A stretch of 64,000 bases of DNA, taken from NCBI RefSeq assembly GCF_003575975.1, contig NZ_QQXK01000008.1, positions 62,001 through 126,000 on the forward strand. Reading direction: 5' to 3'. Below the pieces are notes generated by a model that worked only from the letters and a program-made list of their open reading frames with translations, was not told where the DNA came from and ran no database searches. Of this stretch, positions 31,166-49,388 are shown piece after piece. The DNA comes from Galactobacter valiniphilus (GTDB taxonomy: Bacteria > Actinomycetota > Actinomycetes > Actinomycetales > Micrococcaceae). Each line of letters begins with the position of its first letter. Position 1 is the stretch's first letter. The position numbers and the translations under genes were made by a program.

Positions 31166-31175
31166 GAGAGGAACC

Positions 31176-32560: not shown

Positions 32561-33583
32561 ATGTCGCTCCCCAGCCCTTCCCCCGCCGACGCGATCCCCG
32601 CCGGTCAGGCCACCGGCGCCTCGCTCCCGTACTTCGACGCCGCGGCGGTCCGCGCCGCCCTGCCATGAGAGCGGGCGGTGGACGGGCTCGAGTCCGCCCT
32701 GCGAGGCGGCCTCGACCCCGAGGTGGACGCCGAGCGGCTCTTCTCCCCCACCCCGCACGGCGAGTTCCTGCTCATGCCGGCGGTCGCCGAGGCAACCATG
32801 GGCATCAAGGTGCTCACCGTCAGTCCCGGCAACCCCGAGCGCGGACTCGAGAAGATTCAGGGCAGCTACCTCCTCTTCGACGCCGAGACGTCGGCCCCGC
32901 TCGCCGTGCTGGACGGACTCGAACTGACGGCCGTCCGCACGCCCGCCGTCACGCTCACGGCGTTGCGTTCCCTCGCCGCGGCGGCACCGGAAGGGGACGC
33001 CCTGCCCGCCGCCCCCGAGGTCCTCGTGTTTGGCGCCGGTATCCAAGCGCTGAATCACCTGCTTGCCCTCGCCTGGTGCTGGCCGGGCGCCCGCTTTGGC
33101 GTCGTGGGTCGACGCGCCGAGCGCGTTGCCGCACTGATCGCCGGCGCGGCGCAGGCGGGCGTCGGGGTCTCGGACCGCGGGACCGACGTGGAGCGCGCCG
33201 TGCGCGGCGCGCACGTCATCGTCACGCTCACCACGGCCACCACACCGCTGTTCGACGGCGGGTGGGTGCGTCCCGGCGCGATCGTCGCCGCCGTGGGCCA
33301 GCACGGCCTGCACGCCCGCGAGGTCGACCACGCGCTGGTGCTGCGCTCCGACGTCCTGGTCGAGGGTCGCGGGTCCGCTCTGCGCGAGGCAGGGGATCTC
33401 ATCCCCGCCCGCTCGGCCGAGGAATGGGTACGGCTGGCCCCGCCAAACCTCGCCGACGCGGCCCTCGATCGGCTGCGACGGCGCCCGGGCGCGCCAGCCC
33501 TGTACTGCGGGGTGGGCATGTCATGGGAGGACCTCGTACTCGCCTCGCTGGTGCACGGGAGCGCAGGGACCGCGGCGGCGTGA
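32561..33583 (+). pseudogene. Ornithine cyclodeaminase-family gene with in-frame TGA
   Basis: Family of NAD(P)-dependent imine reductases and ornithine cyclodeaminases (mu-crystallin fold). From ATG 32561 (AAGGA at 32548-32552) the frame reads LPYFDAAAVRAALP and then meets TGA at 32666-32668, where the family usually has Trp (LPWxRAV). After it the frame continues intact as ERAVDGLESALRGG, with the substrate region VLTVSPGNPERGL, the Rossmann loop VLVFGAGIQALNHLL and VIVTLTTATTPLF, to TGA 33581. One G-to-A change or base-call error explains it. GTG 32678 could restart a protein lacking 39 residues, but no Shine-Dalgarno is seen. It may belong with the catabolic genes downstream. Confidence 0.75.
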
Positions 33584-33864
33584 CCCGCCGTCGAGCTCTC
33601 ACATGACGCTTGCATGACGCCGACCGCACGATCGGCTTCTGCCTCCATCGCCCGCACCGGGGCGGGTCCCTCGCGCGAGGATGGCCCGCCCCGCCGCCAT
33701 CCACGTCGGCGCCGCGCGGCGTGGTGTGCAAAGTGCCTACGGTGCGCGTTTTCCCCAGGGCATTCCGGCCAAATCCAGCACGGGGCGTGTCGTAGCTTCA
33801 AGCCACGGCAGTGACAGACATCACGTGCCCGACTTGCAGCCACTCCCCCTCTGGAAGGCATCCC

Positions 33865-34869
33865 ATGAAGAAGACGTTCCCCATGCTGATGGCCCTCGGA
33901 ACCGCCGGGGCCCTCGCGCTCAGCGGTTGCGCCGGCGGTAGCGCCGCCCCTGCCGACGGCTCCTCGGCCCCGGTCAAGATCGGGTTCTTCGGCTTTGCCG
34001 CCTCGAACTCCTTTGCCCAGGGCACGTTCAGCGGCGTCAAGAAGGCCGCCGAAGCCAACGGCGCCACCGCCACCTTCGTCGATGGCAACTTCGACGGCCA
34101 GGCCCAGGCTCAGCAGATCACCGACGCCGTCACCTCGAAGCAGTTCGACGTGATGATCGTGCAGGCGAACGACAACCTGGTGGTCAAGCAGCCGCTCGAG
34201 AACGCCATCAAGGCCGGCATCACCGTCGTCATCGAGTTCGTCCCGGTCGGTGACAACTTTGACACCACCGAGCCGCAGATCGAGGGCGCCATCAGCATCG
34301 TCGACCCGCCCGTCGGCAACGGCAAGGGCCTGGCCACGATGGGCCTTGACGCGTGCAAGCAGGTCTCGGGCGAGTGCGAGGTGGCCTACATGGAAGGCAA
34401 CCCCGCCCTGCCGCTAGATAACGCAAGGACCAAGGCCGTTCTCGATACCCTCGCGACCGGCAGCAACGTCAAGGTCCTGCCCAAGGTCACGGGCGGTTAC
34501 ACGCAGGACGATGGCCGCAAGGCCTACCAGAGCATCGTTCAGGCGAACCCCGGCGTCGACGTCATCATCGGCTCGACTCAGGCCATCGCCGGGGCCTGGG
34601 AGGCCGGCGGCAAGGACACCGAGATCAAGTTCGTCGGCAACGGCGCCTCCATCCAGGCCGTCGACCACGTGCGCAACGGTGACTGGTTCGGCATCTGGTC
34701 GATCGACGTTCTCAAGGACGGCGAGACAGCTGCCGAGTACGGGATCAAGAAGCATCGCGGCGAGGACGTCGCGCTGGCCACCGCGGAGAGCTCTCTTGGC
34801 GTGAACAACGGGCTCGGCACGAAGGAGGCCCTGGACAAGGCCAACTTCGTCTCCGGCTACAACGAGTGA
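33865..34869 (+). CDS. Ribose-type ABC transporter substrate-binding lipoprotein
   Basis: 334-aa ligand-binding subunit of a CUT2-type importer. Signal peptide MKKTFPMLMALGTAGALALS ends in the lipobox LSGC, so it is membrane-anchored outside the cell. The mature protein is a type I periplasmic-binding fold: KIGFFGFAASNSFAQGTF, DVMIVQANDNLVVKQPLENA, GECEVAYMEGNPALPLDNAR and VDVIIGSTQAIAGAWEAGG. The family mostly binds sugars but also autoinducers and other small rings. Start ATG 33865 follows GGAAGG (33853-33858). It heads the transport part of the hydantoinase-like cluster, so the ligand may be that pathway's substrate. Confidence 0.92.
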   Translation: MKKTFPMLMALGTAGALALSGCAGGSAAPADGSSAPVKIGFFGFAASNSFAQGTFSGVKKAAEANGATATFVDGNFDGQAQAQQITDAVTSKQFDVMIVQANDNLVVKQPLENAIKAGITVVIEFVPVGDNFDTTEPQIEGAISIVDPPVGNGKGLATMGLDACKQVSGECEVAYMEGNPALPLDNARTKAVLDTLATGSNVKVLPKVTGGYTQDDGRKAYQSIVQANPGVDVIIGSTQAIAGAWEAGGKDTEIKFVGNGASIQAVDHVRNGDWFGIWSIDVLKDGETAAEYGIKKHRGEDVALATAESSLGVNNGLGTKEALDKANFVSGYNE

Positions 34870-34877
34870 GCCTCCTC

Positions 34878-34934
34878 GACTCACGATCGCGCCGTTCGTG
34901 AGTCCGCCGCGGTCCGGGGCGACCCGGACCGCGG
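34878..34934 (+). other. Tandem intercistronic hairpins
   Basis: Two hairpins in the 95-base gap between the binding protein and the ATPase. First: GACTCACGA (34878-34886) with complement 34896-34904. Second: CCGCGGTCCGGG (34907-34918) with exact complement 34923-34934 around GCGA, a GNRA tetraloop. No T-run follows and the operon continues, so they probably stabilise or attenuate the message to give more binding protein than ATPase and permease. Confidence 0.65.
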
Positions 34935-34964
34935 CTCCCACCACGTCTTGAGAAAGGCCTCGCC

Positions 34965-36503
34965 ATGTCGCGCGCACCCGCCGCAGCCCACTCGCCCTCC
35001 CAGCACACCTCCACGGATCGCCAAATGGCACCCACGATCACCCTCGAGGGGGTGGGTAAGAGCTACTCGGGCACGTCCGTCTTGCGTGGGGTCAGCCTCA
35101 GCATCGTCCCCGGGGAGATCCACGCATTGCTCGGAGAGAACGGGGCTGGCAAGTCGACGCTGCTCAAAATTCTCGGTGGCGTCATCTCCGCAGATGAGGG
35201 CACTGTTCGCTTTGGCGGACGCGAGGTGCGGGTGGGAAGCCCCCGCGAGGCCATCGATCTTGGGGTGTCCCTCATTGCCCAGGAACTGGCACTTGTCCCC
35301 CAGCGCACGGTGCTCGAGAACATTTTCCTTGGTCGGTGGGACAACGTCGCGGGGTTTTCCCGCGACGGCGCCGACCGCTCTGCGGCGGCATGGATCATCG
35401 ACGAACTCGGATTCGATCTCTGCCTCGATGACCTGGTCTCGACGCTCTCCCTCGGCCAGGCCCAACAGCTCGAAATCGTGAAGGCGCTTGCACGGGGTTC
35501 AAAGGTGCTGTGTCTGGATGAACCGACAGCGGCACTCGGCGAGCAAGACACGCAGAACTTGCTCAAGGTTCTGCGCAGGCTGGCAAGCCAAGGGACCACC
35601 GTCATCATCGTTTCCCACTTCCTCGACGAGGCGCTCGGCCTCGCCGACCGCATGACCGTCCTCCGCGACGGCGAGCACATCACCACGGACACGACGCAGG
35701 GCTACACACCTCGCGATGTTGTTGCCCTCATGGTGGGCAGGGAGGTGGGTTCCCTCTCGGCATCCCCCGACCCCGTGCCGACGGACGCGGCCGTGGTGCT
35801 CGACGTCGAACACCTGAGCAACACGCGGATCACGTCCATCACGCTGCAAGTGCGGGCCGGGGAGATCGTCGGCCTCGCCGGCCTGATGGGCAGCGGACGC
35901 AGCGAAACCCTCATGGCCATTGCCGGAGCGGATCGGTCAAGCGCCGGGCGCATCAGCGTTTCAGGCACTCCGTTGAAGCGCTCGTCGTTGCGCGCTGCCA
36001 TGCGCGCAGGCGTTGCGCTGATCCCCGAATCCAGAAAGGAACAAGGGTTGGTCCTGGGGCGCGGGGTCGGGGACAACGTTGCCCTGCCTTCGCTGCGTCG
36101 GCGCCAGGTGTTCGGCTGGATCCAGCGCGGTCGCGAGCGCGAGACGGTGAGTACCGCCATCACCAGCGTCGACATCCGGGGCCGCGTTGAGCATGTCTCA
36201 GTGGGCGAGCTCTCCGGCGGCAATCAGCAAAAGGTGCTGTTCGCCAAGTGGCTCGTTGAGGCTCCCCGGGTGCTCCTGATCGACGAGCCAACCCGCGGTG
36301 TCGACATCGCTGCCAAGGCAAACATCCATCACCTCATCATCGAGCTCGCGCGCCGTGGCACCGCCGTGATCGTCGCCAGCTCCGACCTCGAAGAGGTCCT
36401 GTCCCTGTCCCACCGTCTGCTGGTGCTGCGTCAGGGCGCCGTCGCAGCCGAGTTCGGTCGCGGCGCCCCCGCGAACGACGTCATGACCGCAGCCTTCCTG
36501 TAG
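34965..36503 (+). CDS. Ribose-type ABC transporter ATPase, two nucleotide-binding domains
   Basis: 512-aa fused ATPase energising the CUT2 importer. First domain: P-loop GENGAGKST (residues 57-65), signature SLGQAQQLEIVKALA and Walker B KVLCLDEPTAAL. Second domain: degenerate P-loop GLMGSGRSE, intact signature SVGELSGGNQQKVLFAKWL and VLLIDEPTRGVDIAAK. The degenerate second P-loop is normal for RbsA/XylG/MglA proteins. ATG 34965 follows GAGAAAGG; an in-frame ATG 20 codons later would remove a non-conserved tail. The permease GTG follows after nine bases. Confidence 0.95.
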   Translation: MSRAPAAAHSPSQHTSTDRQMAPTITLEGVGKSYSGTSVLRGVSLSIVPGEIHALLGENGAGKSTLLKILGGVISADEGTVRFGGREVRVGSPREAIDLGVSLIAQELALVPQRTVLENIFLGRWDNVAGFSRDGADRSAAAWIIDELGFDLCLDDLVSTLSLGQAQQLEIVKALARGSKVLCLDEPTAALGEQDTQNLLKVLRRLASQGTTVIIVSHFLDEALGLADRMTVLRDGEHITTDTTQGYTPRDVVALMVGREVGSLSASPDPVPTDAAVVLDVEHLSNTRITSITLQVRAGEIVGLAGLMGSGRSETLMAIAGADRSSAGRISVSGTPLKRSSLRAAMRAGVALIPESRKEQGLVLGRGVGDNVALPSLRRRQVFGWIQRGRERETVSTAITSVDIRGRVEHVSVGELSGGNQQKVLFAKWLVEAPRVLLIDEPTRGVDIAAKANIHHLIIELARRGTAVIVASSDLEEVLSLSHRLLVLRQGAVAAEFGRGAPANDVMTAAFL

Positions 36504-36512
36504 GAGAGAATC

Positions 36513-37559
36513 GTGCACACCCCCACCGCACCCCAGTCAGCGGCGCCGGCACCAGCCGACGGCCCCGACCGCCCACGCCCCGCCGTCGAGTCGCATCGAG
36601 CGGCACGTCGTCCCCGCCTGCCCTTTGATCTCAAGGACTTCGGAGTGCTCGGCGGATTGCTCGCCATCATCGTTTTCCTGAGCGTCTCCACCTCGACGTT
36701 CCTCACGCAGCAAAACCTCGTCAACGTGCTCGACCAGACGGTCGTCATCGGCCTCCTGGCGGTGGGAGCGACGATCTGCATCATCAGCGGTGTCTTCGAC
36801 CTCTCGGCGAGCGCAAACCTCGCCATCTCCGCGATTGCCGGCGTGTACTTCACTCAGCACTTCGGTGTGGCGCTCGGCTTCGTCCTCGCGCTCATCACCG
36901 GCGCCGCGTTGGGAGCGATCACGGGATCCATCATCGTGTTCACGCGCGTGCATTCGTTCATCGGGTCGCTCGCGACGAGCATCATCTTCCGCGGCATCGC
37001 CGTCGTGCTGACCGGCGGCGCCATCGTTGCTCCTTTGGCCTCTCAGTCCGAGGCCTTCCGGGTCTGGACCTCTCCCGTCGTGGGAGGGATCACCGCGGGC
37101 ACGGTCCTCTTCGTCGTCGCGATCGTCGTCTTCGGCCTGCTCCTGGCCCGCACCACCTACGGCCGCAGGGTCTACGCGGTCGGCGGAAATATTGAGGCCG
37201 CGCGGCTCGGCGGCGTGCGCACGGGCTTGATGCACATTTCGGCCTTCGCCATCAGCGGGCTGTGCGCGGCGGCCGCGGGCATGGTGCTCGCCTCCCGCGC
37301 CGGCTCCGCCCAACCTGCCATGGCCACGGGGTACGAGCTCACGGCCATCGCTGCAGTGGTCATCGGCGGCACCAGCATCATGGGTGGCACGGGAGCCGTG
37401 TGGCGCACGGCGGTCGGCGTGGTCTTGCTCACCATCATCGCCAACGGTTTCAATCTCTTGGGATGGAACACCACGTATCAGCAGGTGGTCACCGGCGGCC
37501 TCATTCTCGTGGCCGTCGCGGCCGACAGCCTGATCTTCCAGCGCCTCAAGCGAAAGTAA
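36513..37559 (+). CDS. Ribose-type ABC transporter permease
   Basis: 348-aa membrane subunit of the BPD_transp_2 (RbsC-like) family, eight to ten hydrophobic segments after a basic, proline-rich N-tail of about 40 residues. Family landmarks: GVFDLSASANLAISAIAGVY, YAVGGNIEAARLGGVRTGL (the EAA-like loop) and ELTAIAAVVIGGTSIMGGTG. Start GTG 36513 with GGAGAGAA upstream. Last gene of the transport unit; an imperfect hairpin follows before the hydantoinase-like genes. Confidence 0.94.
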   Translation: MHTPTAPQSAAPAPADGPDRPRPAVESHRAARRPRLPFDLKDFGVLGGLLAIIVFLSVSTSTFLTQQNLVNVLDQTVVIGLLAVGATICIISGVFDLSASANLAISAIAGVYFTQHFGVALGFVLALITGAALGAITGSIIVFTRVHSFIGSLATSIIFRGIAVVLTGGAIVAPLASQSEAFRVWTSPVVGGITAGTVLFVVAIVVFGLLLARTTYGRRVYAVGGNIEAARLGGVRTGLMHISAFAISGLCAAAAGMVLASRAGSAQPAMATGYELTAIAAVVIGGTSIMGGTGAVWRTAVGVVLLTIIANGFNLLGWNTTYQQVVTGGLILVAVAADSLIFQRLKRK

Positions 37560-37591
37560 GACACCCGGTTGCGTCGCCGTCGCCGCCGCCT

Positions 37592-37620
37592 CTTGCCGCC
37601 CCGAGTGGGGCGTGGGCAAG
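37592..37620 (+). terminator. Imperfect hairpin after CUT2 importer operon
   Basis: CTTGCCGCCCC (37592-37602) pairs with GGGGC (37607-37611) and, past a GTG bulge, GGCAAG (37615-37620), loop GAGT. It lies 32 bases after the permease stop and 55 before the next gene, with no T-run. Possible partial terminator. Confidence 0.45.
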
Positions 37621-37675
37621 GGGCGACGGCGCTGCGGCGCCTTTCGGGGCCATCGAGCCTTAAGGAAGGGACGGC

Positions 37676-39001
37676 ATGAGAATCGGCGTGCACTTGGGGA
37701 ACGAGCGCGTTGCGCTCGTCTCGATCGATGACGGCGGTCAGGTCTGTACGGAACTCGTGGAGGGTTCGCCAAGCGACAATGGCCAGCAACTGGATCTGCT
37801 GGCCGACGGCCTCAAGCGACTTGTGCGAACGTGGAAGGCCGGGCAGAGCGGAGCTCAGGTTCGACGCATCACCTTCGACGTTGGGACTTTGCTCGACGCG
37901 GGGATGGCTGGTGCGCGGCAACGGCCCCCTGCGGAGGCCGGTGCGACTCCGGTTCTCGTCAGGATCGCCCCTCGTCCGCCGGCCGACCGCGCTCACGAAT
38001 TGCGCAATTCCGCTCCGGGCCTGCAGCGGGCGCAGATTCATCACCTGTTCGGAGGGCATTCGGCCGTCGGTGAAGAACTCGCCCCGCTCGATCTCGGCGG
38101 CGCCACCGAACTGGCGCGGCGCATCTCCCCCGGGCAGCGGATCGTTGTCACCGCCGTGGGCAGTCTGACCAATCCTCAGCACGAACTCGCTGTGGGCAAG
38201 GCGCTCTTAGACGGGGGCCAGCCGACGGAGGTGAGCTATTCGCACGCCTACTTCAGCACCTCCTTTGCCGCACGCGAACGGACGGCCATGCTCAATAGTT
38301 CCCTCACGGAGACGACCGCCCGCTTTGCCACGGAGCTTGCGGCCCTCTGCCGCGAACTCTTCCCACTCGCGCGCCCGCTCGTCAGCACGAACGACGGCGG
38401 CAGCACCTCGTTGAGCAGGCTGTCCGTTTCACCTGTGCACTCCCTCGCTTCCTCGCCCGCCGCCAAGATCGTCGGGGCCTCAGCACACCTTGGCCATCGC
38501 GAAGGCAAGCTCCTCATCGACGACCCGCACCAGCCCTTGCTTGGGCAACTCCTCGATGGCCTGCCGGTGGTTGGCTCGCGCTACAGCCCCACCGAGGTTG
38601 GCCTCATCGCCAGCCGCGGTGCGCTGAGTTGGAGCGTTCCCGACGCCACTCTTGCGCAGTGGTCCGGCCCCCGTGTGCACGTGACCTCGCCTGAGGCCGT
38701 GTGCGCGCTGGGGGCCGCTTGCGCACCCGTCACCGAATGGGTCAACACGATGTCGACGATTAAGACCCACGAGGAATTCACCGCCGCACTTCGGATGGCT
38801 GAGAATCGGGCACACGCGCGGCTCGTGTCCTTGGGATACGCCCCCTCCTCCGTCCGCACCGCGGAGTCTCGTGCCGAGGCCGCCACCTTTGGGCATCCCA
38901 ACATTGTGGCCATCCGTGTGCGCGCCGTCGTGGACGGCCTTCCCACGCACCTGGCCACCTCCCCCGACCCCCCGACACTTGCCTCCCAGCAGGGCGCATG
39001 A
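37676..39001 (+). CDS. Degenerate hydantoinase-A/oxoprolinase-like protein
   Basis: 441 aa, about two thirds the length of a full HyuA. It resembles the HyuA architecture: an actin-like N-terminal start (MRIGVHLGNERVALVSIDDG), VSTNDGGSTSL in the middle, AKIVGASAHLGHREGKLLID, TSPEAVCALGAACAPVTEWV where HyuA proteins have their AVGAAxA segment, and a C-terminal helix-strand unit ENRAHARLVSLGYAP / NIVAIRVRAVVDG. The phosphate-binding DxGGTxTD motif of true HyuA is absent at the N-terminus, so ATP hydrolysis is doubtful. Its stop overlaps the DUF917 start, suggesting the two act together. Start ATG 37676 with GGAAGGG before it. Exact role unknown. Confidence 0.7.
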   Translation: MRIGVHLGNERVALVSIDDGGQVCTELVEGSPSDNGQQLDLLADGLKRLVRTWKAGQSGAQVRRITFDVGTLLDAGMAGARQRPPAEAGATPVLVRIAPRPPADRAHELRNSAPGLQRAQIHHLFGGHSAVGEELAPLDLGGATELARRISPGQRIVVTAVGSLTNPQHELAVGKALLDGGQPTEVSYSHAYFSTSFAARERTAMLNSSLTETTARFATELAALCRELFPLARPLVSTNDGGSTSLSRLSVSPVHSLASSPAAKIVGASAHLGHREGKLLIDDPHQPLLGQLLDGLPVVGSRYSPTEVGLIASRGALSWSVPDATLAQWSGPRVHVTSPEAVCALGAACAPVTEWVNTMSTIKTHEEFTAALRMAENRAHARLVSLGYAPSSVRTAESRAEAATFGHPNIVAIRVRAVVDGLPTHLATSPDPPTLASQQGA

Positions 39002-40077
39002 GACTCTCCGAAGCCGATCTCGATCACCTGCTCGAGGGCGCCCTCTTCACCTCGTGTTCCGTCTCTCATGAATGGTGTGAGGAACTGCGGGACACGGCGC
39101 TTGAATACATGCGCGCCGGGGCCCCTGGGCCCGAACTGCTCGACATCTCGGCGTTCGAGGACACGGACCTCATCGCCACCATCGGCTTCGTGAACAAGGG
39201 GCAACCCGTCACCGAGCTGCGACCGGTCGGCGACGAATTCGTGACGTGCCTTGAACTGCTTGCCGAGGCGGTGGGCCGCCCGGTTCGCGGCATCATGCCT
39301 CTCGCCGGCGGCAACGCCAATGTGTTACTTGCCATGGCCATTTCCGTCCAGACCGGGCTGCCGGTGGTGGACGCCGACCCGATGGGCCGCATTTTTCCTC
39401 TGGTGAATCAGACCGTCTTCACCCTCGCCGGATTGCCGGTCGGCCCAGTCGCTGCTGCGGGTGCACTCGGGGAAAGCGCGGTGCTGCAGATTTCGAGGCC
39501 GGAACGGGCCGATCACGTTCTGCGTTCCCTTGCCGACGAGTTCGGGGGCTGGGTGGCCACGGCCAGCTACCCCATGGACGCCGCGACCGCGGCCACGTCC
39601 GCGCTGCTCGGAAGCCTCTCGCAGCTCATCAGCATCGGTTCCCTCTTGCGCTCGCCCCTGCCGAGCGCTCAAAAGCATGCGGCGCTGCGCCGCCTCGCTG
39701 GGGTCAAGCAGGTGGTCCGCGCCGAGGTGGCCCAGGCGGGCTGGCACGCCCACCCCAGCCTGCCCGGGCAGGTCAAGTTCCCCTCCCAGGTCATCCTCAA
39801 CGATCTCGCCCAGGGGCGGGTCGTCCAATTGCAGGTAGAAAACGAGATCCTCATGCTCATGATCGACGGCTCCGTCAGAGCGTCCATGCCCGACATCATC
39901 ACTCTCATGGACCCGGAGTCCGGCGCCGTGCTCTCGCTCGAGCACCTGTGGCCCGGAAACGTCGTGGACGTCGTCGTCTTGCCCGCGGCGCCCGCCTGGT
40001 ACACCCCGGAGGGGCTCGCCCTGGCCGGCCCCGAGGCCTTTGGCCTTGGCACGCATCGACGGGAGGGGCGTCGATGA
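38998..40077 (+). CDS. DUF917 family protein
   Basis: 359 aa, the normal length of the DUF917 family, whose biochemical role is not established. Features: LRPVGDEFVTCLELLAEAVG, the glycine-rich GIMPLAGGNANVLLAMAISV, the acidic loop TGLPVVDADPMGRIFPLVNQ (possible metal site) and KFPSQVILNDLAQGRVVQLQ near the C-terminal beta domain. ATG 38998 overlaps the stop of the HyuA-like gene, and its own stop overlaps the PucR start (ATGA). DUF917 is repeatedly associated with hydantoinase/oxoprolinase-like proteins, so a role as partner subunit in ring opening is plausible but inferred. Confidence 0.85.
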   Translation: MRLSEADLDHLLEGALFTSCSVSHEWCEELRDTALEYMRAGAPGPELLDISAFEDTDLIATIGFVNKGQPVTELRPVGDEFVTCLELLAEAVGRPVRGIMPLAGGNANVLLAMAISVQTGLPVVDADPMGRIFPLVNQTVFTLAGLPVGPVAAAGALGESAVLQISRPERADHVLRSLADEFGGWVATASYPMDAATAATSALLGSLSQLISIGSLLRSPLPSAQKHAALRRLAGVKQVVRAEVAQAGWHAHPSLPGQVKFPSQVILNDLAQGRVVQLQVENEILMLMIDGSVRASMPDIITLMDPESGAVLSLEHLWPGNVVDVVVLPAAPAWYTPEGLALAGPEAFGLGTHRREGRR

Positions 40078-41555: not shown

Positions 41556-41562
41556 GCGAGCT

Positions 41563-41589: not shown

Positions 41590-41652
41590 ACTCTGCCCGG
41601 TGTGCCCCAGATCACTCTCGATACTGTCGCAAGACGCCGCCTGAAGCGGCGT

Positions 41653-41673
41653 CCCGACCCGGTTCGGGGGCCT
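41653..41673 (+). terminator. Second hairpin before the small monooxygenase-like gene
   Basis: GACGCCGC (41653-41660) and its exact complement (41666-41673), loop CTGAA. It lies 45 bases before ATG 41718. It could strengthen termination after the PucR gene or act in the 5' leader of the next operon. Confidence 0.45.
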
Positions 41674-41717
41674 CCCAGCGACGGTCTCCGCGCCCCACGG
41701 CACGATCGAGGCACCGC

Positions 41718-42029
41718 ATGATTCGTTCCCTTCTGACGTTTTCGCCAGCCGCCGAGGACGTCCCCGCGCTCTTGGAGCTGTACCGCCGCCTGGACATCCT
41801 CAGCACCTCGCTGCGTCACACCCGCCAGATTCGCTCCGACATCGCCGTCGCGGCGGACGGCTCGGGAACCGTCCTCGTGACCGCCGACTGGCCGGACGCG
41901 GCCGCCTACACCGAGTGGCTTGAGCACCCGGTGCGCGGGCGTTTCGCCCCCGAGCTCCAGGAACTGCTGGGGCGCCGGGTCGGTGAGGGTGCGCTCTACC
42001 AGGTCGATCACGGCGCCTCGCGCGGGTAG
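41718..42029 (+). CDS. Small ferredoxin-like-fold protein (ABM-like)
   Basis: 103 aa. The pattern is that of a dimeric alpha/beta-barrel (antibiotic biosynthesis monooxygenase-like) domain: MIRSLLTFSPAAEDVPALLE, a helix, TRQIRSDIAVAADGSGTVLV, TADWPDAAAYTEWLEHPVRG and a last strand EGALYQVDHGA. Such proteins are monooxygenases, isomerases or stabilising partners. It lies 49 bases upstream of hyuA and is likely co-transcribed. The fold assignment is by pattern only; no catalytic residue can be pointed out. Confidence 0.7.
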   Translation: MIRSLLTFSPAAEDVPALLELYRRLDILSTSLRHTRQIRSDIAVAADGSGTVLVTADWPDAAAYTEWLEHPVRGRFAPELQELLGRRVGEGALYQVDHGASRG

Positions 42030-42078
42030 CCACGCCTCCCGTTCTCCCCACACCTCCACCCCATTGGAAGGACTCCCC

Positions 42079-44133
42079 ATGAGCAACAACGTCCGCGTCG
42101 CCATCGACGTCGGCGGCACCTTCACCGACGTCGTCAAGCTGGTCCCCGAGACCGGCGAGCTGCGCTTCGAGAAGGTCCCGACCACCCCCAGCGCCCCCAC
42201 CGAAGGAGTGCTTGCCGCCTTCGGTAAGGCCGAGGCCGAGCCGGCCCAGGTCTCGATGTTCAACCACGGCAGCACCCTGGGTCTCAACGCCCTGCTCACG
42301 CGGTCCGGTGCCAAGATCGCCACGATCGCCACGCGCGGCTTCCGCGATGTCTACCTGCTCGGTCGCACCAACCGCGTGCCGATGTACGACCTGACGTACC
42401 ACAAACCCAAGGCCCTCATGGAGCGCTACGACACCTTCGAGGTGACCGAGCGATCGCTCTTCGACGGCAGCGTCGCCACACCGCTGGACGAGGACGAGGC
42501 CCGCGAGCTGGCACGCGAGATCGGCCGCCGCGGCTATGCCGCCGTCGCGATCTGCTTCCTCCACGCCTACGTGGCGCCCGCCCACGAGGCCCGCATGCGC
42601 GACATCCTGCTCGAGGAGGTGCCGGGCATCGAGGTCTCGGTCTCCCACGAGCTCTCGCGCGAGTACCGCGAATACGAGCGCACGAGCACCGCCGTGCTCG
42701 ACGCCTACATCAAGCCCATCATGCGCAGCTACCTGCTTGGCCTCGGCAAGGAGCTCGAGGCCCGCGACTTCGAAGGCCAGTTCCTCATGTCCCGCTCGGG
42801 CGGCGGCGCCATGACCGCCAGCATGGCCCGCGAACAGCCGGTGAACCTGATCCTCTCGGGTCCGGCGGGCGGCGTCGTCGGCGCCGCCGGCTTCTCCAAG
42901 CTCGTGAACCGCCCGAACCTGATCACGATCGACATGGGCGGCACATCCCTCGACGCCTCGCTGGTCCTGGACCACGCCCCGGTGCTCTACCGCGGCGCCG
43001 AGTTCGAGGGCCTGCCGATCAACACCCCCTCGCTCTACATCCACACCATTGGTGCCGGCGGCGGCTCGCTCGGTTACCTGGATGCTGCCGGCGGCCTGCA
43101 GGTGGGCCCGGAGAGCGCCGGCGCGCAGCCCGGCCCCGCCGCCTACGGCCGCGGCGGCACCCGCCCCACGTTCACCGACGCGGCGCTGGCCATCGGCTAC
43201 CTCGGTGCTGACACCCCGCTCGGCGGCTCGCTCACGCTGGACGCCCCGGCCGCCGAGGCCGCCCTGGCCCCGATCGCCGACGAGCTCGGGCTGAGCACGA
43301 CCGAACTCGCCCGCGGCATGGTCAACATTTCAAACGCCAAGATCACCGGCGCCGTCCGCGCGATCACGATCGAGCTCGGCCACGACCCGCAGGACTTCGC
43401 GATGCTGTCCTTCGGCGGCGGCGGTGGCCTCGTGGCCGTGGATGTGGCCCGCGAGCTCGGGGTGCCCGAGGTCATCGTGCCTCCGGGGCAGGGCGCCTTC
43501 TCCGCCCTCGGCATGCTCATGGCCGACGTGCAGCACGACCTCTCGCGGACCCTCGTGCGCCCGCTCGCCGAGCTGGACCTCGAGGTCGCCGAGCAGCTCT
43601 ACGCCGACATGGAGCGCGAGGCCTCTGCTCTGTTGAGCGCCGAGGGCTTCTCCGCGGATGCCCAGCTGTTCCAGCGCGGCGTGGAAGTTCGCTTCCTGGG
43701 CCAGGAGCACTCGGTGTCCGTGGGATACCGCGCGGAGCTCGACGACCCGCGCGAGGCCATCCGCGCGGACTTCGACGAGGCGCACGAGCGCCAGTACGGC
43801 CACGTGCTCGATGATCCCCACGAGGTGACGACGCTGCGCCTCGCCGCGGTCGGTGTGGTGGACAAGCCCGACCTGCCGCGCCTGGCGCACCGCGCCGCCG
43901 GCGAGAGCTACACGAGCGGCACCCGCGTCGTGACGTTACCGGGCGACGTCAAGGCCGAGTACGCCCTCGTGGCGCGCGAGGACCTCCTGGTCGGCGATGT
44001 GGTCGAGGGGCCCGCCGTCATCACCGAGCACACCGCCACCACCGTGATGCATGCCGGCGACCGACTCGTGGTCGGCGAGTACGGAGAGCTCACGATCACC
44101 ATCCACTCCGCCACCGAGAGCAAGGACGCCTGA
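42079..44133 (+). CDS. Hydantoinase/oxoprolinase subunit A (HyuA family)
   Basis: 684-aa ATPase subunit of the hydantoinase/5-oxoprolinase/acetone carboxylase superfamily; with subunit B it couples ATP hydrolysis to opening or carboxylating a carbonyl or lactam substrate. N-terminal actin-like motif RVAIDVGGTFTDVVKLVPET is intact (residues 5-24). Further features: FNHGSTLGLNALLTRSGAKI, REYREYERTSTAVLDAYIKP, NLILSGPAGGVVGAAGFSKL, ITIDMGGTSLDASLV and HTIGAGGGSLGYLDAAGGLQ. Length is typical. ATG 42079 follows GGAAGGA; hyuB starts one base after the stop. The exact substrate (hydantoin, oxoproline, other lactam) cannot be told. Confidence 0.92.
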   Translation: MSNNVRVAIDVGGTFTDVVKLVPETGELRFEKVPTTPSAPTEGVLAAFGKAEAEPAQVSMFNHGSTLGLNALLTRSGAKIATIATRGFRDVYLLGRTNRVPMYDLTYHKPKALMERYDTFEVTERSLFDGSVATPLDEDEARELAREIGRRGYAAVAICFLHAYVAPAHEARMRDILLEEVPGIEVSVSHELSREYREYERTSTAVLDAYIKPIMRSYLLGLGKELEARDFEGQFLMSRSGGGAMTASMAREQPVNLILSGPAGGVVGAAGFSKLVNRPNLITIDMGGTSLDASLVLDHAPVLYRGAEFEGLPINTPSLYIHTIGAGGGSLGYLDAAGGLQVGPESAGAQPGPAAYGRGGTRPTFTDAALAIGYLGADTPLGGSLTLDAPAAEAALAPIADELGLSTTELARGMVNISNAKITGAVRAITIELGHDPQDFAMLSFGGGGGLVAVDVARELGVPEVIVPPGQGAFSALGMLMADVQHDLSRTLVRPLAELDLEVAEQLYADMEREASALLSAEGFSADAQLFQRGVEVRFLGQEHSVSVGYRAELDDPREAIRADFDEAHERQYGHVLDDPHEVTTLRLAAVGVVDKPDLPRLAHRAAGESYTSGTRVVTLPGDVKAEYALVAREDLLVGDVVEGPAVITEHTATTVMHAGDRLVVGEYGELTITIHSATESKDA

Positions 44134-44134
44134 C

Positions 44135-45847
44135 ATGGTCGACGCCATCACCACCGAGATCATCCGCCACGGGCTGTTGGCCGCGGCCGAGGAGATCGCC
44201 CGCAATCTGTGCCGCACCGCCTACAACACGGTCGTGTACGAGGTCCACGACTACGGCATCGGCATCCACGACGCGAGCGGCGACGTCGTCGCCGACACCC
44301 CCGGCGTGGCGGTGTTCACGCGCGGCAACGACATGGGTATTAAGTACGCCATCGACTTCCTCGGCAAGGACACGATGGAGCCTGGCGACGTGTTCATCAT
44401 GAACTACCCGTACTGGGCCAGCGCCCACGCGCTTGACCCTCTGGTGTTTGCCCCGATCCACTTCAACGACGAGCTCATCGGCTTCACGAGCTGCCGTGTG
44501 CACGTGACGGACCTGAACCAGAAGGATCCGGGCTACGTTCTCGACTCGACGGACATGTCGCAGGAGGGCCTCATGATGCCCGCCTCCAAGCTGTACCGCC
44601 GCGGCGTTCGCAATGAGGACGTCTACAACATCATCAAGTTCAACAGCCGCCGCCCGCGGCACACGATCGGCGACATCCAGTCGCAGGTCTCCGCCGTTTA
44701 CACCGGCGTTAAGCGCACGCAGGAACTCGCGGCCAAGTACGGCCCGGACACCCTGACCGAGGCAATGGACGCGATCAACGCGCACGGAGAGCGCCTTTCG
44801 CGCATGGCCCTGAAGAAGCTGCCGAAGGGCAGCTGGACGGCCGTCGACTATGTCGACGAGGACGGTGTGGACGTGGGCGAGCTGGTGCGCCTGCAGGTGA
44901 CCGTGACGATCACCGACGACGAGATGGTCATTGACTGGACCGGCAGCGCCAAGGGCGTCCGCGGCCCAGTCAACGTCCCGGTGGGCCTGACCACCGCTGC
45001 GTGCTCGCTCATCTTCAAGTCGGTCACGACTCCGGATTCGCCGGTGGTCGCTGGAAACTTCGCGCCCATGCGCGTGGTCACCGAGGAGGGATCCGTGGTG
45101 CACGCGATTCCTCCCATGCCCACGTTCACGCTGTGGACGGGCATCCTCGCCGGCGAGGTCGTCCTGAAGGCCCTCGCCCAGGCGATGCCCGACCGCATCC
45201 CTGCGTGCTCCGGCGGCGACGTCTGCGCGTTCATCGGCCTGGGCACCGACCCGCACACCGGCGAGCAGTGGCAGGACGGCAGCAACGAGGCGGTGGGCTT
45301 CGGCGGCTCCGCGACCATGGACGGCGAGGACGGCATCATGCACCTGTCCGAGCCCGGCTGCCGCAACACCCCCATCGAGGTGTTTGAGATGCGTACGCCG
45401 CTGTTCCTTGAGCACTACGGCTACCGCCAGGACAGCAGCGGCGCCGGCAAGTACCGCGGCGGCGTTGGCATCTCGCGCGCCTACCGCTACACGGCGCCCG
45501 GCATCGGCATCATGCTCTCCTACAAGACCCGCACCAAGCCGTGGGGTATCGAGGGCGGGCACGAGGCCACCCCGAACGCGGTCATCCTCAACCCGGGCAC
45601 TGACGCCAAGCGCTGGGAGGGCCCCAGCTACAACCACATGGCGGCCGGCGAGGTGCTCGTCAACGCGACGGGTGGCGGCGGCGGCTACGGCGATCCGATG
45701 GAACGCGATCCGCAGGCCGTGGTTCGCGACGTGCGCAATGGCTACCTCTCGGTGGCCGCCGCGGCCCGCGACTACCGCCTCGTGGTGACCGAGGGCTTCG
45801 CCATCGACGAGGAGGCGACCGCCGCGCTGCGCGCGCCGGTGGCCTGA
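44135..45847 (+). CDS. Hydantoinase/oxoprolinase subunit B (HyuB family)
   Basis: 570-aa partner of HyuA. Typical features: ITTEIIRHGLLAAAEEIARN at the start, VHDYGIGIHDASGDVVADTP, DVFIMNYPYWASAHALDPLV, a domain boundary at VIDWTGSAKGVRGPVNVPVG, and the C-terminal GAGKYRGGVGISRAYRY and NATGGGGGYGDPMERDPQAV, a motif shared across HyuB, acetone carboxylase and acetophenone carboxylase subunits. Stop and start of the pair are separated by a single base. A textbook terminator follows. Confidence 0.93.
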   Translation: MVDAITTEIIRHGLLAAAEEIARNLCRTAYNTVVYEVHDYGIGIHDASGDVVADTPGVAVFTRGNDMGIKYAIDFLGKDTMEPGDVFIMNYPYWASAHALDPLVFAPIHFNDELIGFTSCRVHVTDLNQKDPGYVLDSTDMSQEGLMMPASKLYRRGVRNEDVYNIIKFNSRRPRHTIGDIQSQVSAVYTGVKRTQELAAKYGPDTLTEAMDAINAHGERLSRMALKKLPKGSWTAVDYVDEDGVDVGELVRLQVTVTITDDEMVIDWTGSAKGVRGPVNVPVGLTTAACSLIFKSVTTPDSPVVAGNFAPMRVVTEEGSVVHAIPPMPTFTLWTGILAGEVVLKALAQAMPDRIPACSGGDVCAFIGLGTDPHTGEQWQDGSNEAVGFGGSATMDGEDGIMHLSEPGCRNTPIEVFEMRTPLFLEHYGYRQDSSGAGKYRGGVGISRAYRYTAPGIGIMLSYKTRTKPWGIEGGHEATPNAVILNPGTDAKRWEGPSYNHMAAGEVLVNATGGGGGYGDPMERDPQAVVRDVRNGYLSVAAAARDYRLVVTEGFAIDEEATAALRAPVA

Positions 45848-45860
45848 GTCCTCACCCCCA

Positions 45861-45904
45861 GCGCGGGGCCGTGCCGTTTCACCGGCGCGGCCCCGCGCCG
45901 TTTT
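45861..45904 (+). terminator. Rho-independent terminator after hyuB
   Basis: GCGCGGGGCCGTGCCG (45861-45876) pairs with 45883-45898 (one G-U pair), loop TTTCAC, and TTTT follows at 45901-45904. It is the best classical terminator in the window and marks the end of the hyuAB unit. Confidence 0.88.
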
Positions 45905-45978
45905 CAGCCCGAGGCGACCCCACGCCGTCGGGCACCCCGTCCAGTGGGTTCCGACCCCTCAGTGAAAGCGAGCAGTCT

Positions 45979-47208
45979 ATGAGCACGAACGCACCCCACG
46001 AGCAGGTGATCATCACCGACGCCATGATCTGGGACGGGATCGACGCGGGATTTGTCCAGCGCCCGCTGATCCTTCTCGACGGCCTCATCGCCGGGGCCAC
46101 CGTCCCCGGACGTCCCACGCGCCGCGTCGACGGCGCCGGATCGTGGGTCATCCCCGGGCTCATCGACGCCCACTTCCACGCCTACGCGATCAGCATGGAC
46201 GGCCTCGAAAACGAACGAGGCCCGCTCTCCTTCGCCGCGCTCAGCGCGAGCGTGCGACTCAAAGCTGCGCTGCGGCGCGGCTTCACCACCGTCCGCGACG
46301 TGGCGGGCGGCGACATCGGGCTGCGGCACGCCGTCGACGCCGGCCTCTTCTCGTCCCCGCGCTACCTGTTCACGGGCCCGGCCCTCAGCCAGACGGGAGG
46401 CCACGGCGATCCGCGCTCGGCCGAGGTGGACGTGTGCTTCTCTCACGGGCACATGTGCGAGGTTGTGGACGGCGTGGAGCCGCTGCGTGTGGCGGTGCGC
46501 GAGCGCCTGCGCACCGGGGCTCACGCCATCAAGGTCATGACCTCCGGCGGGGTCTTCTCGCTCACCGATCCGCTGCCGATCCCGCAGTACTCGGCCGAGG
46601 AGCTGCGCGCGGTCACGGACGAGGCGACGCGCCGCGGCAGCTACGTCACCGCGCATTCCTACTCTGCCGAGGCGGTGCGCCACTCGATCGAAAACGGCGT
46701 GCGGTGCATCGAACACGGAAACCTGATCGACGGCGCGACGGCCGGGGAGATGGCGCGCACTGGCACGGCACTAGTCCCCACCTTGGCGGCGTACGACGCC
46801 ATGGGCCGCCGGGGCGCAGCGCTGGGTCTGAACGCCGTCTCGCTCGCCAAGAATGACGAGGTGCTCTCCCAGGGAAGCGAGGCCGCAGCCATGGCGGATC
46901 ACGCGGGAGTGCTGGTCGGCTTCGGCACCGACCTCATGGGCGATCTCGAGGACGAGCAGCTCACCGGCGTGCGGCTGCAGGTGGCGGCCCTCGGTCCGGA
47001 TCGGGCTCTGCACTCCATGACCGCTGCCAACGCGCGCATCCTGCGCGATCCGCGCTTGGGGAGGCTCACGGAGGGCGCCCATGCCGATCTCGTGATGCTG
47101 CGTGAGAACCCCCTTGAACACCCGGCGGCGCTCTGGGAGCAGGCCGCCCGCCGCGCGGTGCTGCGCGGCGGGCGGGACGTCGAGGAGCTCGTCGCGTCGA
47201 TGAGCTAG
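45979..47208 (+). CDS. Metal-dependent amidohydrolase
   Basis: 409-aa amidohydrolase-superfamily enzyme. Metal and catalytic residues are visible in order: WVIPGLIDAHFHAY (His-x-His), HAIKVMTSGGVFSL (bridging Lys), YVTAHSYSAEAVRHSIENGV (His), RCIEHGNLIDGATAGEMA (His) and VGFGTDLMGDLEDEQL (Asp). The C-terminal half also has the usual ANARILRDPRLGRLTEGAHADLVML. This motif order is that of the prolidase/imidazolonepropionase-like branch acting on peptides or cyclic amides. It may hydrolyse the product or precursor of the HyuAB step. Its TAG shares a CTAG with the M17 peptidase stop. Confidence 0.9.
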   Translation: MSTNAPHEQVIITDAMIWDGIDAGFVQRPLILLDGLIAGATVPGRPTRRVDGAGSWVIPGLIDAHFHAYAISMDGLENERGPLSFAALSASVRLKAALRRGFTTVRDVAGGDIGLRHAVDAGLFSSPRYLFTGPALSQTGGHGDPRSAEVDVCFSHGHMCEVVDGVEPLRVAVRERLRTGAHAIKVMTSGGVFSLTDPLPIPQYSAEELRAVTDEATRRGSYVTAHSYSAEAVRHSIENGVRCIEHGNLIDGATAGEMARTGTALVPTLAAYDAMGRRGAALGLNAVSLAKNDEVLSQGSEAAAMADHAGVLVGFGTDLMGDLEDEQLTGVRLQVAALGPDRALHSMTAANARILRDPRLGRLTEGAHADLVMLRENPLEHPAALWEQAARRAVLRGGRDVEELVASMS

Positions 47209-48647: not shown

Positions 48648-48710
48648 GGCTCTCCTCAAGAGGGGCAGCGGAACGTCGGTGTGCCGACACCCTAGGAGGG
48701 CCGACAACGC

Positions 48711-48737
48711 GCGGCTTGTGCAGATTGCACAAGCCGC
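48711..48737. promoter_or_regulatory. 12-bp inverted repeat between peptidase and cyclophilin genes
   Basis: GCGGCTTGTGCA (48711-48722) and its exact complement TGCACAAGCCGC (48726-48737), spacer GAT. The core TTGTGCA / TGCACAA is operator-like. It lies 63 bases upstream of the peptidase start and 90 bases upstream of the cyclophilin start. Either a regulator-binding site for one or both divergent genes or a fold in a leader RNA. Confidence 0.55.
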
Positions 48738-48827
48738 CTCCCCACCCCTCACGCACCCTGGAACGCGTCGGCATCCCTGCGCCCTTCCGCACCGCGGCAC
48801 GTGAGCGCCAGACCCCTTGGAGACCAG

Positions 48828-49388
48828 ATGACCCACGTGAGATTCACGACCCAGCTCGGCACCTTCGACGTGCAGCTCGAGGGCGAGCGGGCCCCGATCA
48901 CCGTCCGGAACTTCGTGCGCTACGTCGAGGACGGGGCCTACGACGGCGCTGCGTTCAGCCGGGTGGTGAGCCCCAAGACCTCCGGGAACGGCCTGCTCCC
49001 CGGCCTCGAGGAGCTGGACTCCGCGATCCTGCCCAACGGCGATGTCCCCATCAGCGTGGTGCAGGGCGATGCCCGCACCGGGGCCAGGATCGGCGCCCCC
49101 ATCGCCTTGGAAACCACGGCGGAGACCGGCCTCAGCCACCTCGACGGGACGCTCTCGATGGGTCGGCTCGAACCCGACAGCGCCACGACGGAGTTCTTCC
49201 TGTGCCTGGGCGATCAGCCCGCGCTCGACTTTGGGGGCCAGCGCAATCCGGACGGCCAGGGCTTCGCGGCCTTCGGGCGGGTGAGCGCCGGCATGGACGT
49301 GGTCCGTGCGATCCACGCCTCGCCGGCCGCTGGGCAGTCCCTCGACCCTGTGATCGGGATCCTGTCGGTGCGCGTCCTCGCCGCTTAG
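48828..49388 (+). CDS. Cyclophilin-type peptidyl-prolyl isomerase
   Basis: 186-aa cytoplasmic cyclophilin fold: VRFTTQLGTFDVQLEGERAP, TVRNFVRYVEDGAYDGAAFS followed by RVV (the FHRV active-site motif is FSRV here), SMGRLEPDSATTEFFLCLGD and GQGFAAFGRVSAGMDVVRAI. The catalytic Arg remains but the preceding His is Ser, so activity may be lowered. ATG 48828 has GGAG upstream (48819-48822). No signal peptide. Its link with the neighbouring catabolic genes is only positional. Confidence 0.88.
   Translation: MTHVRFTTQLGTFDVQLEGERAPITVRNFVRYVEDGAYDGAAFSRVVSPKTSGNGLLPGLEELDSAILPNGDVPISVVQGDARTGARIGAPIALETTAETGLSHLDGTLSMGRLEPDSATTEFFLCLGDQPALDFGGQRNPDGQGFAAFGRVSAGMDVVRAIHASPAAGQSLDPVIGILSVRVLAA

What the first reader, a model, noticed from the sequence alone, without database searches (positions are those of the whole stretch)
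32561..49388. Candidate uptake-and-ring-opening system built around HyuAB, DUF917 and a CUT2 importer
On one strand lie a CUT2 ABC importer, a degenerate HyuA-like protein, a DUF917 protein, a PucR regulator, a small ferredoxin-like-fold protein, a complete HyuA/HyuB pair and an amidohydrolase, flanked by an ornithine-cyclodeaminase-like gene, an M17 aminopeptidase and a cyclophilin. HyuA/HyuB families hydrolyse lactams or carboxylate ketones with ATP; PucR regulators serve ureide/hydantoin-type pathways. Together they suggest import of a small cyclic amide (or modified peptide-derived ring), ATP-driven opening, then amide hydrolysis. The substrate is not predictable, and the combination with a ribose-type importer is unusual to me.
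Basis: partly seen in the sequence, partly recalled or inferred. Interest (0 to 1): 0.72.

Follow-up and report, generated by a model that had tools for sequence, protein, structure and literature searches.

The report
Actinobacterial cyclic prolyl-dipeptide scavenging cluster
A conserved set of genes in soil actinobacteria appears to import small ring-shaped proline-containing peptides, open the ring with ATP and split the product to free proline, and it carries an enzyme pair that has lost its usual catalytic motifs and may have become the sensor.

Summary
The ribose-type (CUT2) importer, HyuA/HyuB pair and amidohydrolase form a conserved neighbourhood: complete CUT2 importer in 40 of 52 related loci, HyuA+HyuB in 49 of 52; 36 control DUF917 loci have no such binding protein and no HyuAB at 50% identity. 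Searching from the binding protein alone, 12 of 12 strong matches (window included) lie beside HyuAB.

Most likely function: import of proline- or hydroxyproline-containing cyclic dipeptides (or close lactams), ATP-driven opening by HyuAB, and Xaa-Pro cleavage by a prolidase-like amidohydrolase. Support: nearest solved amidohydrolases are prolidases; in a distant relative an M24 prolidase-type gene stands there instead, near proline dehydrogenase; hydroxyproline-catabolic genes, PutA, M17 and OCD-family genes recur nearby in a minority.

New point: the 'degenerate HyuA' and DUF917 both lost family motifs (ATP motifs 0 of 50; DUF917 G21, G24 and E103 0 of 51), yet stay under purifying selection, in fixed order before PucR (51 of 51). 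The catabolic core occurs without them. I read them as a repurposed, perhaps sensory, pair; an auxiliary enzyme is not excluded. No biochemistry was done; the substrate is inferred.

The parts
32678..33583 (+). OCD/mu-crystallin family gene, best NCBIfam models are delta-1-pyrroline-2-carboxylate reductases (below cut-off); N-terminal part (from 32561) separated by an in-frame TGA at 32666-32668
   Evidence: PF02423 109 bits; pyrroline-2-carboxylate reductase family 158 bits, cut-off 266; in-frame stop; OCD-family genes in 12 of 52 loci
33865..34869 (+). CUT2 substrate-binding lipoprotein
   Evidence: PF13407 108.5 bits; predicted fold Z about 31 to ribose/arabinose-binding proteins; ribose-contact charges lost
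34965..36503 (+). CUT2 double-ATPase subunit
   Evidence: PF00005, two stretches
36513..37559 (+). CUT2 permease
   Evidence: PF02653 132.9 bits
37676..39001 (+). HyuA-like protein without ATP-binding motifs (pseudo-HyuA)
   Evidence: model pLDDT 89.5; Z 25.7 to acetophenone carboxylase alpha and 24.8 to caprolactamase CapA; phosphate-1 and phosphate-2 motifs in 0 of 50 members
38998..40077 (+). DUF917 (S-Me-THD-like) protein of a divergent clade
   Evidence: PF06032/PF20906; thiohydantoin desulfurase models 58 bits against cut-offs of 440-450; G21, G24 and E103 lost in 51 of 51
40074..41555 (+). PucR-family transcriptional regulator, start overlapping the DUF917 stop (ATGA)
   Evidence: PF13556/PF17853; overlap; order hyuA-like, DUF917, PucR in 51 of 51
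41718..42029 (+). small ABM-like ferredoxin-fold protein
   Evidence: PF03992 17.6 bits, cut-off 23.1; homologues in 25 of 52 loci, in L064 above cut-off
42079..44133 (+). HyuA (type W): ATP-binding subunit of a lactamase/hydantoinase
   Evidence: PF01968/PF05378/PF19278; caprolactamase alpha 462.6 bits, cut-off 1000; ATP motifs intact
44135..45847 (+). HyuB (type W): metal-site subunit
   Evidence: PF02538 506.8 bits; Asp-His-Asp-His tetrad intact
45979..47208 (+). prolidase-like amidohydrolase
   Evidence: best solved relatives 3feq/3n2c (prolidase) 263 bits and 3mkv 251 bits
47205..48647 (-). M17 leucyl-aminopeptidase family protein
   Evidence: PF00883 308 bits; near the cluster in 14 of 52 loci, 0 of 36 controls

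Best explanation
A catabolic cluster for (hydroxy)proline-containing cyclic dipeptides (2,5-diketopiperazines) or closely related prolyl lactams. Steps: (1) the CUT2 binding protein and importer bring the ring in; (2) HyuA phosphorylates the lactam with ATP and HyuB hydrolyses it at its metal site, giving a linear Xaa-Pro or Xaa-Hyp dipeptide; (3) the prolidase-like amidohydrolase, helped in some genomes by M17, releases the amino acids; (4) proline goes to PutA, hydroxyproline (in some relatives) to the epimerase pathway, and D-proline or 3-hydroxyproline products may return through the pyrroline-2-carboxylate-reductase-like enzyme; (5) PucR controls the operon. The pseudo-HyuA and DUF917 pair is no longer a normal HyuA-DUF917 enzyme and most likely works with PucR, for example as a ligand-sensing partner. 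Shown: gene content, linkage, intact catalytic motifs of HyuAB and amidohydrolase, motif loss in the pair. Inferred: substrate, reaction order, sensor role.
For: Linkage: 52 system loci against 36 controls; binding-protein-first searches: 13 of 15 matched order genomes beside HyuAB and amidohydrolase, and 12 of 12 strong matches over both searches beside HyuAB, window included. Enzymes: HyuA ATP motifs 27 of 27 (type W) and 36 of 36 (type R); HyuB metal tetrad 26 of 26 and 38 of 38; nearest solved HyuAB are N-methylhydantoinase and caprolactamase. Prolyl product: amidohydrolase closest to solved prolidases, metal ligands in 19 or 20 of 20 rows aligned; in L128 an M24/Creatinase_N gene whose best solved relatives are proline dipeptidases lies between HyuB and the binding protein, with OCD, proline dehydrogenase and P5C-dehydrogenase-type genes on the contig; Pro_racemase/4-Hyp epimerase family in 5 of 52 loci and within about 4 kb of the amidohydrolase in 3 of 4 genomes of one further genus, in Leucobacter loci with DHDPS, DAO, SoxA-like and GntR genes as in the tested Streptomyces coelicolor L-Hyp operon (PMC6608401 passages); PutA in 3 of 52; the window genome holds PutA. 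Accessory pair.
Against: No ligand, activity or expression data. Amidohydrolase, HyuAB and the M24 gene of L128 score below the NCBIfam equivalog cut-offs (197 of 500; 463 and 225 of 1000; 150 of 630). Hyp, PutA and OCD neighbours are minority features and partly of shared descent (four of five epimerase loci are Leucobacter); one control locus, L108, also has an epimerase-family and a DAO gene. The window genome has no PF05544 epimerase, so 4-hydroxyproline is unlikely to be used there by that route. The binding protein has a typical sugar-binding fold. M17 is a general peptidase. The amidohydrolase is seen in only 36 of 52 stretches, often because the stretch ends, but L054 and L076 lack it in full stretches.
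Confidence: 0.55

Rival explanations
1. The substrate is a proline-derived hydantoin: HyuAB opens it to N-carbamoyl-proline, and the amidohydrolase cuts that N-acyl-proline to proline, CO2 and ammonia.
For: The nearest solved HyuAB is an N-methylhydantoinase; DUF917 and PucR belong to hydantoin/thiohydantoin-type neighbourhoods (PucR in 10 of 36 controls); an Asp/Glu (hydantoin) racemase-family gene in 8 of 52 loci and 13 of 36 controls; same proline evidence as the main reading.
Against: M17 in 14 of 52 loci and the M24 proline-dipeptidase-type gene in L128 suggest a dipeptide rather than a carbamoyl amino acid; I recall no abundant natural prolyl hydantoin.
Confidence: 0.17
2. N-methylhydantoin/creatinine catabolism: HyuAB is an N-methylhydantoinase, and the DAO and SoxA-like neighbours are sarcosine oxidases.
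For: Best solved HyuA match is N-methylhydantoinase, 390 bits; DAO genes near four and SoxA-like genes near three loci.
Against: Those oxidases sit with Pro_racemase/4-Hyp epimerase and DHDPS genes, the set of the tested L-Hyp operon; the M24 gene of L128 has proline dipeptidases as best solved relatives; prolidase-type amidohydrolase.
Confidence: 0.07
3. An ordinary sugar or sugar-derivative importer beside an unrelated lactam pathway.
For: CUT2 fold; predicted structure nearest to ribose and arabinose binders, Z about 31; two weak relatives (157 bits) lie without hyu genes (G223 on a 4.9-kb contig, G414).
Against: 12 of 12 strong binding-protein matches lie beside HyuAB; ribose-contact D89, R90 and D215 equivalents replaced in 41 of 41 (list recalled).
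Confidence: 0.06
4. The HyuA-like/DUF917 pair is an auxiliary ATP-independent enzyme (for example isomerase or second ring-opening enzyme) rather than a sensor partner.
For: DUF917 keeps D125, D127, R131, R176, E283 and D299 in 51 of 51; both genes have dN/dS well below 1 and the HyuA-like protein a confidently predicted fold.
Against: Loss of the glycine-rich loop, E103, R249 and G261 in the same clade; the catabolic core occurs without the pair; it travels with PucR in fixed order. Evolutionary rate is weak evidence: HyuA-like evolves like PucR, but binding protein and GAF genes do so too, and DUF917 is intermediate.
Confidence: 0.35

Closest known systems
ATP-dependent caprolactamase CapAB (Pseudomonas jessenii) and N-methylhydantoinase
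   Same: HyuA/HyuB architecture, ATP motifs and metal tetrad kept.
   Different: Caprolactamase NCBIfam scores far below cut-off; linked to a CUT2 importer, a prolidase-like amidohydrolase and, in some genomes, proline-pathway genes.
DUF917/HyuA operons (S-methyl thiohydantoin and thiohydantoin desulfurase families; DUF917 enriched near cyclodipeptide-oxidase clusters without a cyclodipeptide synthase, PMC11055893 passages)
   Same: HyuA-type gene beside DUF917, with PucR in 10 of 36 controls.
   Different: Here one DUF917, family motifs lost, HyuA partner without ATP motifs, importer and full HyuAB added.
COG1228-type prolidases of the amidohydrolase superfamily (3feq/3n2c, 3mkv; COG number recalled)
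   Same: 263 and 251 bits, metal ligands conserved.
   Different: Activity untested; NCBIfam Xaa-Pro dipeptidase 197 bits against a cut-off of 500.
L-hydroxyproline operon of Streptomyces coelicolor (HypR regulon, PMC6608401 passages)
   Same: Epimerase, DHDPS-type deaminase, DAO and SoxA-like dehydrogenase subunits and GntR regulator beside the cluster in Leucobacter loci.
   Different: Not in the window genome (PF05544: no match).
Ribose-type CUT2 importers
   Same: Three-gene composition and binding-protein fold.
   Different: Three charged ribose contacts lost in 41 of 41 (list recalled).

Membership tests
ATP-dependent HyuA/HyuB lactamase-hydantoinase family | ASKHA phosphate-1, phosphate-2 and adenosine motifs in HyuA | tested here: met
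   27 of 27 type W, 36 of 36 type R
ATP-dependent HyuA/HyuB lactamase-hydantoinase family | Asp-His-Asp-His metal site in HyuB | tested here: met
   26 of 26 type W; 38 of 38 type R
ATP-dependent HyuA/HyuB lactamase-hydantoinase family | ATP-dependent ring opening | not testable with these tools
   needs enzyme assay
Caprolactamase (NCBIfam equivalog) | score above curated cut-off | tested here: not met
   462.6 and 225.3 bits against 1000
Active HyuA (for the HyuA-like protein 37676-39001) | HyuA fold | tested here: met
   predicted model: Z 25.7 and 24.8 over 406-414 residues, next unrelated ASKHA 10.8
Active HyuA (for the HyuA-like protein 37676-39001) | ATP phosphate-binding motifs | tested here: not met
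   0 of 50; HyuA partners of control DUF917 keep them in 34 of 34 and 33 of 34
DUF917 / thiohydantoin desulfurase | Pfam PF06032 and PF20906 domains | tested here: met
   90.2 and 116.7 bits
DUF917 / thiohydantoin desulfurase | NCBIfam desulfurase cut-off | tested here: not met
   58.7 and 57.9 bits against 440 and 450
DUF917 / thiohydantoin desulfurase | family-wide glycine-rich loop and Glu at position 103 | tested here: not met
   0 of 51 for G21, G24 and E103; 71, 71 and 72 of 72 control sequences
Prolidase of the amidohydrolase superfamily | HxH, Lys, His, His, Asp metal site | tested here: met
   19 or 20 of 20 rows aligned, one row incomplete; ligand list recalled
Prolidase of the amidohydrolase superfamily | NCBIfam Xaa-Pro dipeptidase cut-off | tested here: not met
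   197.2 bits against 500
Prolidase of the amidohydrolase superfamily | Xaa-Pro hydrolysis | not testable with these tools
   needs assay; nearest solved relatives are prolidases
CUT2 importer | binding protein, fused double ATPase, permease | tested here: met
Sugar (ribose) binding within CUT2 | charged sugar contacts D89, R90, D215 | tested here: not met
   0 of 41; mapping, residue list recalled
Delta-1-pyrroline-2-carboxylate reductase (LhpI-like) | NCBIfam cut-off | tested here: not met
   158.1 of 266 and 130.2 of 400 bits

The most novel reading that the evidence does not exclude
A HyuA-DUF917 enzyme pair has been converted, as a pair, into a non-catalytic ligand sensor or regulatory partner of the adjoining PucR regulator, controlling a previously undescribed pathway that scavenges (hydroxy)prolyl cyclic dipeptides through a ribose-type importer and ATP-dependent ring opening.
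Probability: 0.33. Interest if true: 0.8.

Novelty: new variant of a known kind. Interest (0 to 1): 0.64.

Why it matters
[quoted passage not shown] abstract and first part of the discussion seen). It names Arthrobacter, Leifsonia and Microbacterium strains that degrade them; the parts seen name no genes. This cluster, found in Arthrobacter, Microbacterium, Leucobacter and other actinobacteria and on two plasmids, gives a concrete gene set to test. The paired motif loss in HyuA-like and DUF917 would be an unusual case of a two-protein enzyme turned into something else.

Tried and rejected
Ordinary ergothioneine/thiohydantoin route: the window DUF917 scores 58 bits against cut-offs of 440-450, and the amidohydrolase reaches 16.5 bits against the ErtD model. 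Carboxylase reading (acetone/acetophenone carboxylase): HyuA and HyuB score higher against ring-opening hydrolases. Ectoine use (M24 plus OCD genes): the M24 gene of L128 has 41 bits for DoeA against 150 for PepQ, and its OCD neighbour 156 for EutC against 248 for the best model. The long + frame 32401-33606 looks spurious (arginine-rich, no family). G223 and G414 (157 bits) carry related importers without hyu genes in the stretch read; G223 is on a 4.9-kb contig.

Literature: no paper describing the cluster appeared in the listings of searches. Some lists were partial (20 of 30 shown, 15 of 234, 8 of 39) and the library is open-access only, so this is not proof of absence. Papers seen: PMC11055893, PMC6061476, PMC8453981 and PMC6608401 in passages; PMC3852281 abstract and part 1 of the discussion; the genome paper of strain Rue61a, PMC3534580, searched for six terms, none found; all others in listings only.

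Limits: gene calling in relatives was a home-made codon-score caller plus tblastn with chosen bit thresholds; loci are cut at 10 kb and some contigs are short; related genomes are not independent; the scan kept the best 80 of at least 573 relatives. The residue list of ribose-binding protein and the amidohydrolase ligand list are recalled. System and control loci were divided by DUF917/HyuA-like similarity after seeing the map, then checked by tree (51 system DUF917 form one clade, support 1.0). L034 was dropped as a duplicate of L065 before counting. Counts exclude partial proteins; the amidohydrolase alignment had 20 of the 36 loci with that gene. One search printed only the commonest motif strings, so the 0 of 50 was recounted. 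One control locus, L116, has a distant HyuA/HyuB pair (37 and 33% identity), counted as absent at the 50% threshold. DUF917 positions 79 and 241, invariant in the system, carry the same residue in 25 and 19 of 72 controls, so they are not system-specific. ATGA overlaps were read in the window only; in other loci the spacings vary, up to several hundred bases. Absence of a family among VIA-align rows excludes nothing.
Full report
WHAT IS THERE. The window lies in a 3.4-Mb genome, contig C88. Small corrections: the OCD-family frame has an in-frame TGA at 32666-32668, M17 is on the - strand, and the small protein is ABM-like but below the Pfam cut-off (17.6 of 23.1 bits). The homologous gene in L064 is above it (28.6 bits).

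IS IT MORE THAN CHANCE. A scan of named genomes with the DUF917 alignment kept the best 80 loci. With two plasmid loci, stretches from whole genomes and the window, I compared 52 distinct system loci with 36 control DUF917 loci of other clades. System against control: binding protein 41 of 52 (34 of the window type, 7 of a second type) against 0 of 36; complete CUT2 importer 40 of 52; ATPase or permease matches in 2 of 36 controls; HyuA and HyuB at 50% identity 49 of 52 against 0 of 36, with one distant pair in control L116; ABM or GAF protein 46 of 52 against 0; amidohydrolase 36 of 52 against 2 of 36; M17 14 against 0; OCD family 12 against 0; PutA 3 against 0; 4-Hyp epimerase family 5 against 1; racemase family 8 against 13. 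The 12 without a complete CUT2 set are three contigs that end near the gene (L040, L045, L063), one stretch cut inside the importer (L030, whose permease appears in L126) and eight Arthrobacter-type loci where an MFS permease and a racemase-family gene stand instead. The three without HyuAB are the same three contigs.

A SEARCH THAT STARTS FROM THE IMPORTER. To avoid bias from DUF917, 396 order-level genomes were searched with the binding-protein alignment: 15, the window's own included, match at E up to 1e-40. Neighbourhoods of all 15 were read (the window itself): 13 have HyuAB and the amidohydrolase beside the importer, including all 11 above 380 bits. The two without are weak (157 bits). 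A phylum-level search at E up to 1e-70 (396 genomes including the window's own) added one genome, G745 (357 bits), again beside HyuAB. So 12 of 12 strong matches, the window being one, are linked. The cluster is rare and patchy.

CORE AND ADD-ON. G103, G157, G211 and G235 (ABM, HyuAB, importer, amidohydrolase), G164 (HyuAB, importer, amidohydrolase) and G745 (ABM, HyuAB, importer, M24 gene) show no HyuA-like, DUF917 or PucR in the stretch read (several stretches are limited by contig ends). A whole-genome DUF917 search found none in G103, G157, G211 or G164, and two in G235 on another contig; G745 was not searched elsewhere. In system loci the order HyuA-like, DUF917, PucR on one strand holds in 51 of 51 (L063 is truncated). 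In the window both junctions are ATGA overlaps. The trio therefore behaves as one optional unit.

THE TRIO HAS LOST MOTIFS. The HyuA-like proteins (mostly 400-465 aa) have the HyuA fold: model pLDDT 89.5, Z 25.7 to acetophenone carboxylase alpha and 24.8 to caprolactamase CapA, then 10.8 for unrelated ASKHA proteins. The phosphate-1 and phosphate-2 motifs are absent in 50 of 50, but present in 34 of 34 and 33 of 34 HyuA partners of control DUF917, and in all 63 full HyuA of the system. The tree places the HyuA-like clade with the DUF917 partners, apart from the HyuAB subunits (split support 1.0). DUF917 of the system (51 sequences) lacks G21, G24 and E103 in all, and R249 and G261 in all, where 69 to 72 of 72 control sequences keep them; it keeps D125, D127, G130, R131, R176, E283 and D299 in 51 of 51. 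F81, W185, D324 and Y335 are invariant in the system and found in 6, 8, 7 and 0 of 72 controls. Median dN/dS by group is 0.19-0.29 for HyuA-like, 0.09-0.36 for DUF917, 0.18-0.50 for PucR, 0.08-0.33 for the binding protein and 0.04-0.17 for HyuA and HyuB: constrained, with HyuA-like near PucR, though the binding protein and GAF genes are as fast, so rate alone proves little. Hence my reading of a repurposed pair; an auxiliary enzyme is not excluded.

SUBSTRATE. HyuA and HyuB keep ATP and metal sites and are nearest to N-methylhydantoinase and caprolactamase among solved structures. The caprolactam paper suggests that many genes named 5-oxoprolinase may be lactamase or cyclic dipeptide hydrolase genes (PMC6061476, passages). 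The amidohydrolase is nearest to solved prolidases. In G745 an M24/Creatinase_N gene whose best solved relatives are proline dipeptidases lies between HyuB and the binding protein, and proline dehydrogenase, P5C-dehydrogenase-type and OCD-family genes lie on the same contig; no such amidohydrolase was found on it. This is a different protein family with the same expected Xaa-Pro activity, though its PepQ score is below the NCBIfam cut-off (150 of 630). In four Leucobacter loci the cluster adjoins epimerase, DHDPS, OCD and DAO genes, and in three of them a SoxA-like gene; one Arthrobacter locus (L059) has epimerase, DHDPS and OCD. The set matches the S. coelicolor L-hydroxyproline operon, whose epimerase deletion abolished growth on L-Hyp (PMC6608401, passages). 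In three of four genomes of the genus that contains Quadrisphaera granulorum (G042, G119, G132; name inferred from the shared contig of L034 and L065) a PF05544 gene lies within about 4 kb of the amidohydrolase; in G146 it is on another contig. Only 92 of 396 order genomes have the family at all. PutA adjoins L029, L047 and L062. The window genome has PutA but no PF05544, so proline rather than 4-hydroxyproline is the likely product there.

BINDING PROTEIN. The predicted fold is a sugar-type binding protein (pLDDT 90.1; Z about 31). Mapping ribose contacts (list recalled) through the alignment, D89 is E in 34 and V in 7, R90 is F in 34 and L in 7, D215 is G in 41 of 41; N13, R141 and an aromatic are kept in 41 of 41. 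This argues against ordinary ribose binding but does not identify the ligand.

VERDICT. The most likely work is scavenging of (hydroxy)prolyl cyclic dipeptides or similar lactams, at moderate confidence. The most unusual part is the paired loss of motifs in HyuA-like and DUF917 next to PucR.

Noticed in passing
window 32561-33583: OCD-family frame interrupted by an in-frame TGA at 32666-32668, so the gene is broken or begins at a later start.
   Followed up: partly
L032 (own genome, contig C4): A second, ordinary-looking DUF917 array: HyuA with intact DVGGTNTD motif, three DUF917 genes, PucR and a permease distantly like cytosine permeases.
   Followed up: partly
L028 and L029: The cluster lies on plasmids p232 (typed conjugative) and pYJN5-3, both rep_cluster_1668, with MFS plus racemase instead of the CUT2 importer; p232 also has PepP, OCD, ALDH and an M9 peptidase N-terminal domain gene nearby.
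   Followed up: partly
52 system loci: ABM and GAF small proteins never co-occur: all 25 ABM loci have HyuA type W, none of 21 GAF loci has it.
   Followed up: partly
L108 (Jeotgalicoccus): A control DUF917 locus that also has a Pro_racemase-family and a DAO gene, hinting at another DUF917 link to proline compounds.
   Followed up: no
L070 and L079: Amycolatopsis versions carry a NIT-domain sensor histidine kinase and three small genes after PucR.
   Followed up: no
window 27674-32309: GntR-family, PrpD-, PrpB- and PrpC-type (2-methylcitrate cycle) genes directly upstream.
   Followed up: no
window 33865-34869: Two invariant cysteines (C164, C171 of the binding protein) in all 41 aligned homologues, perhaps a disulphide.
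   Followed up: no
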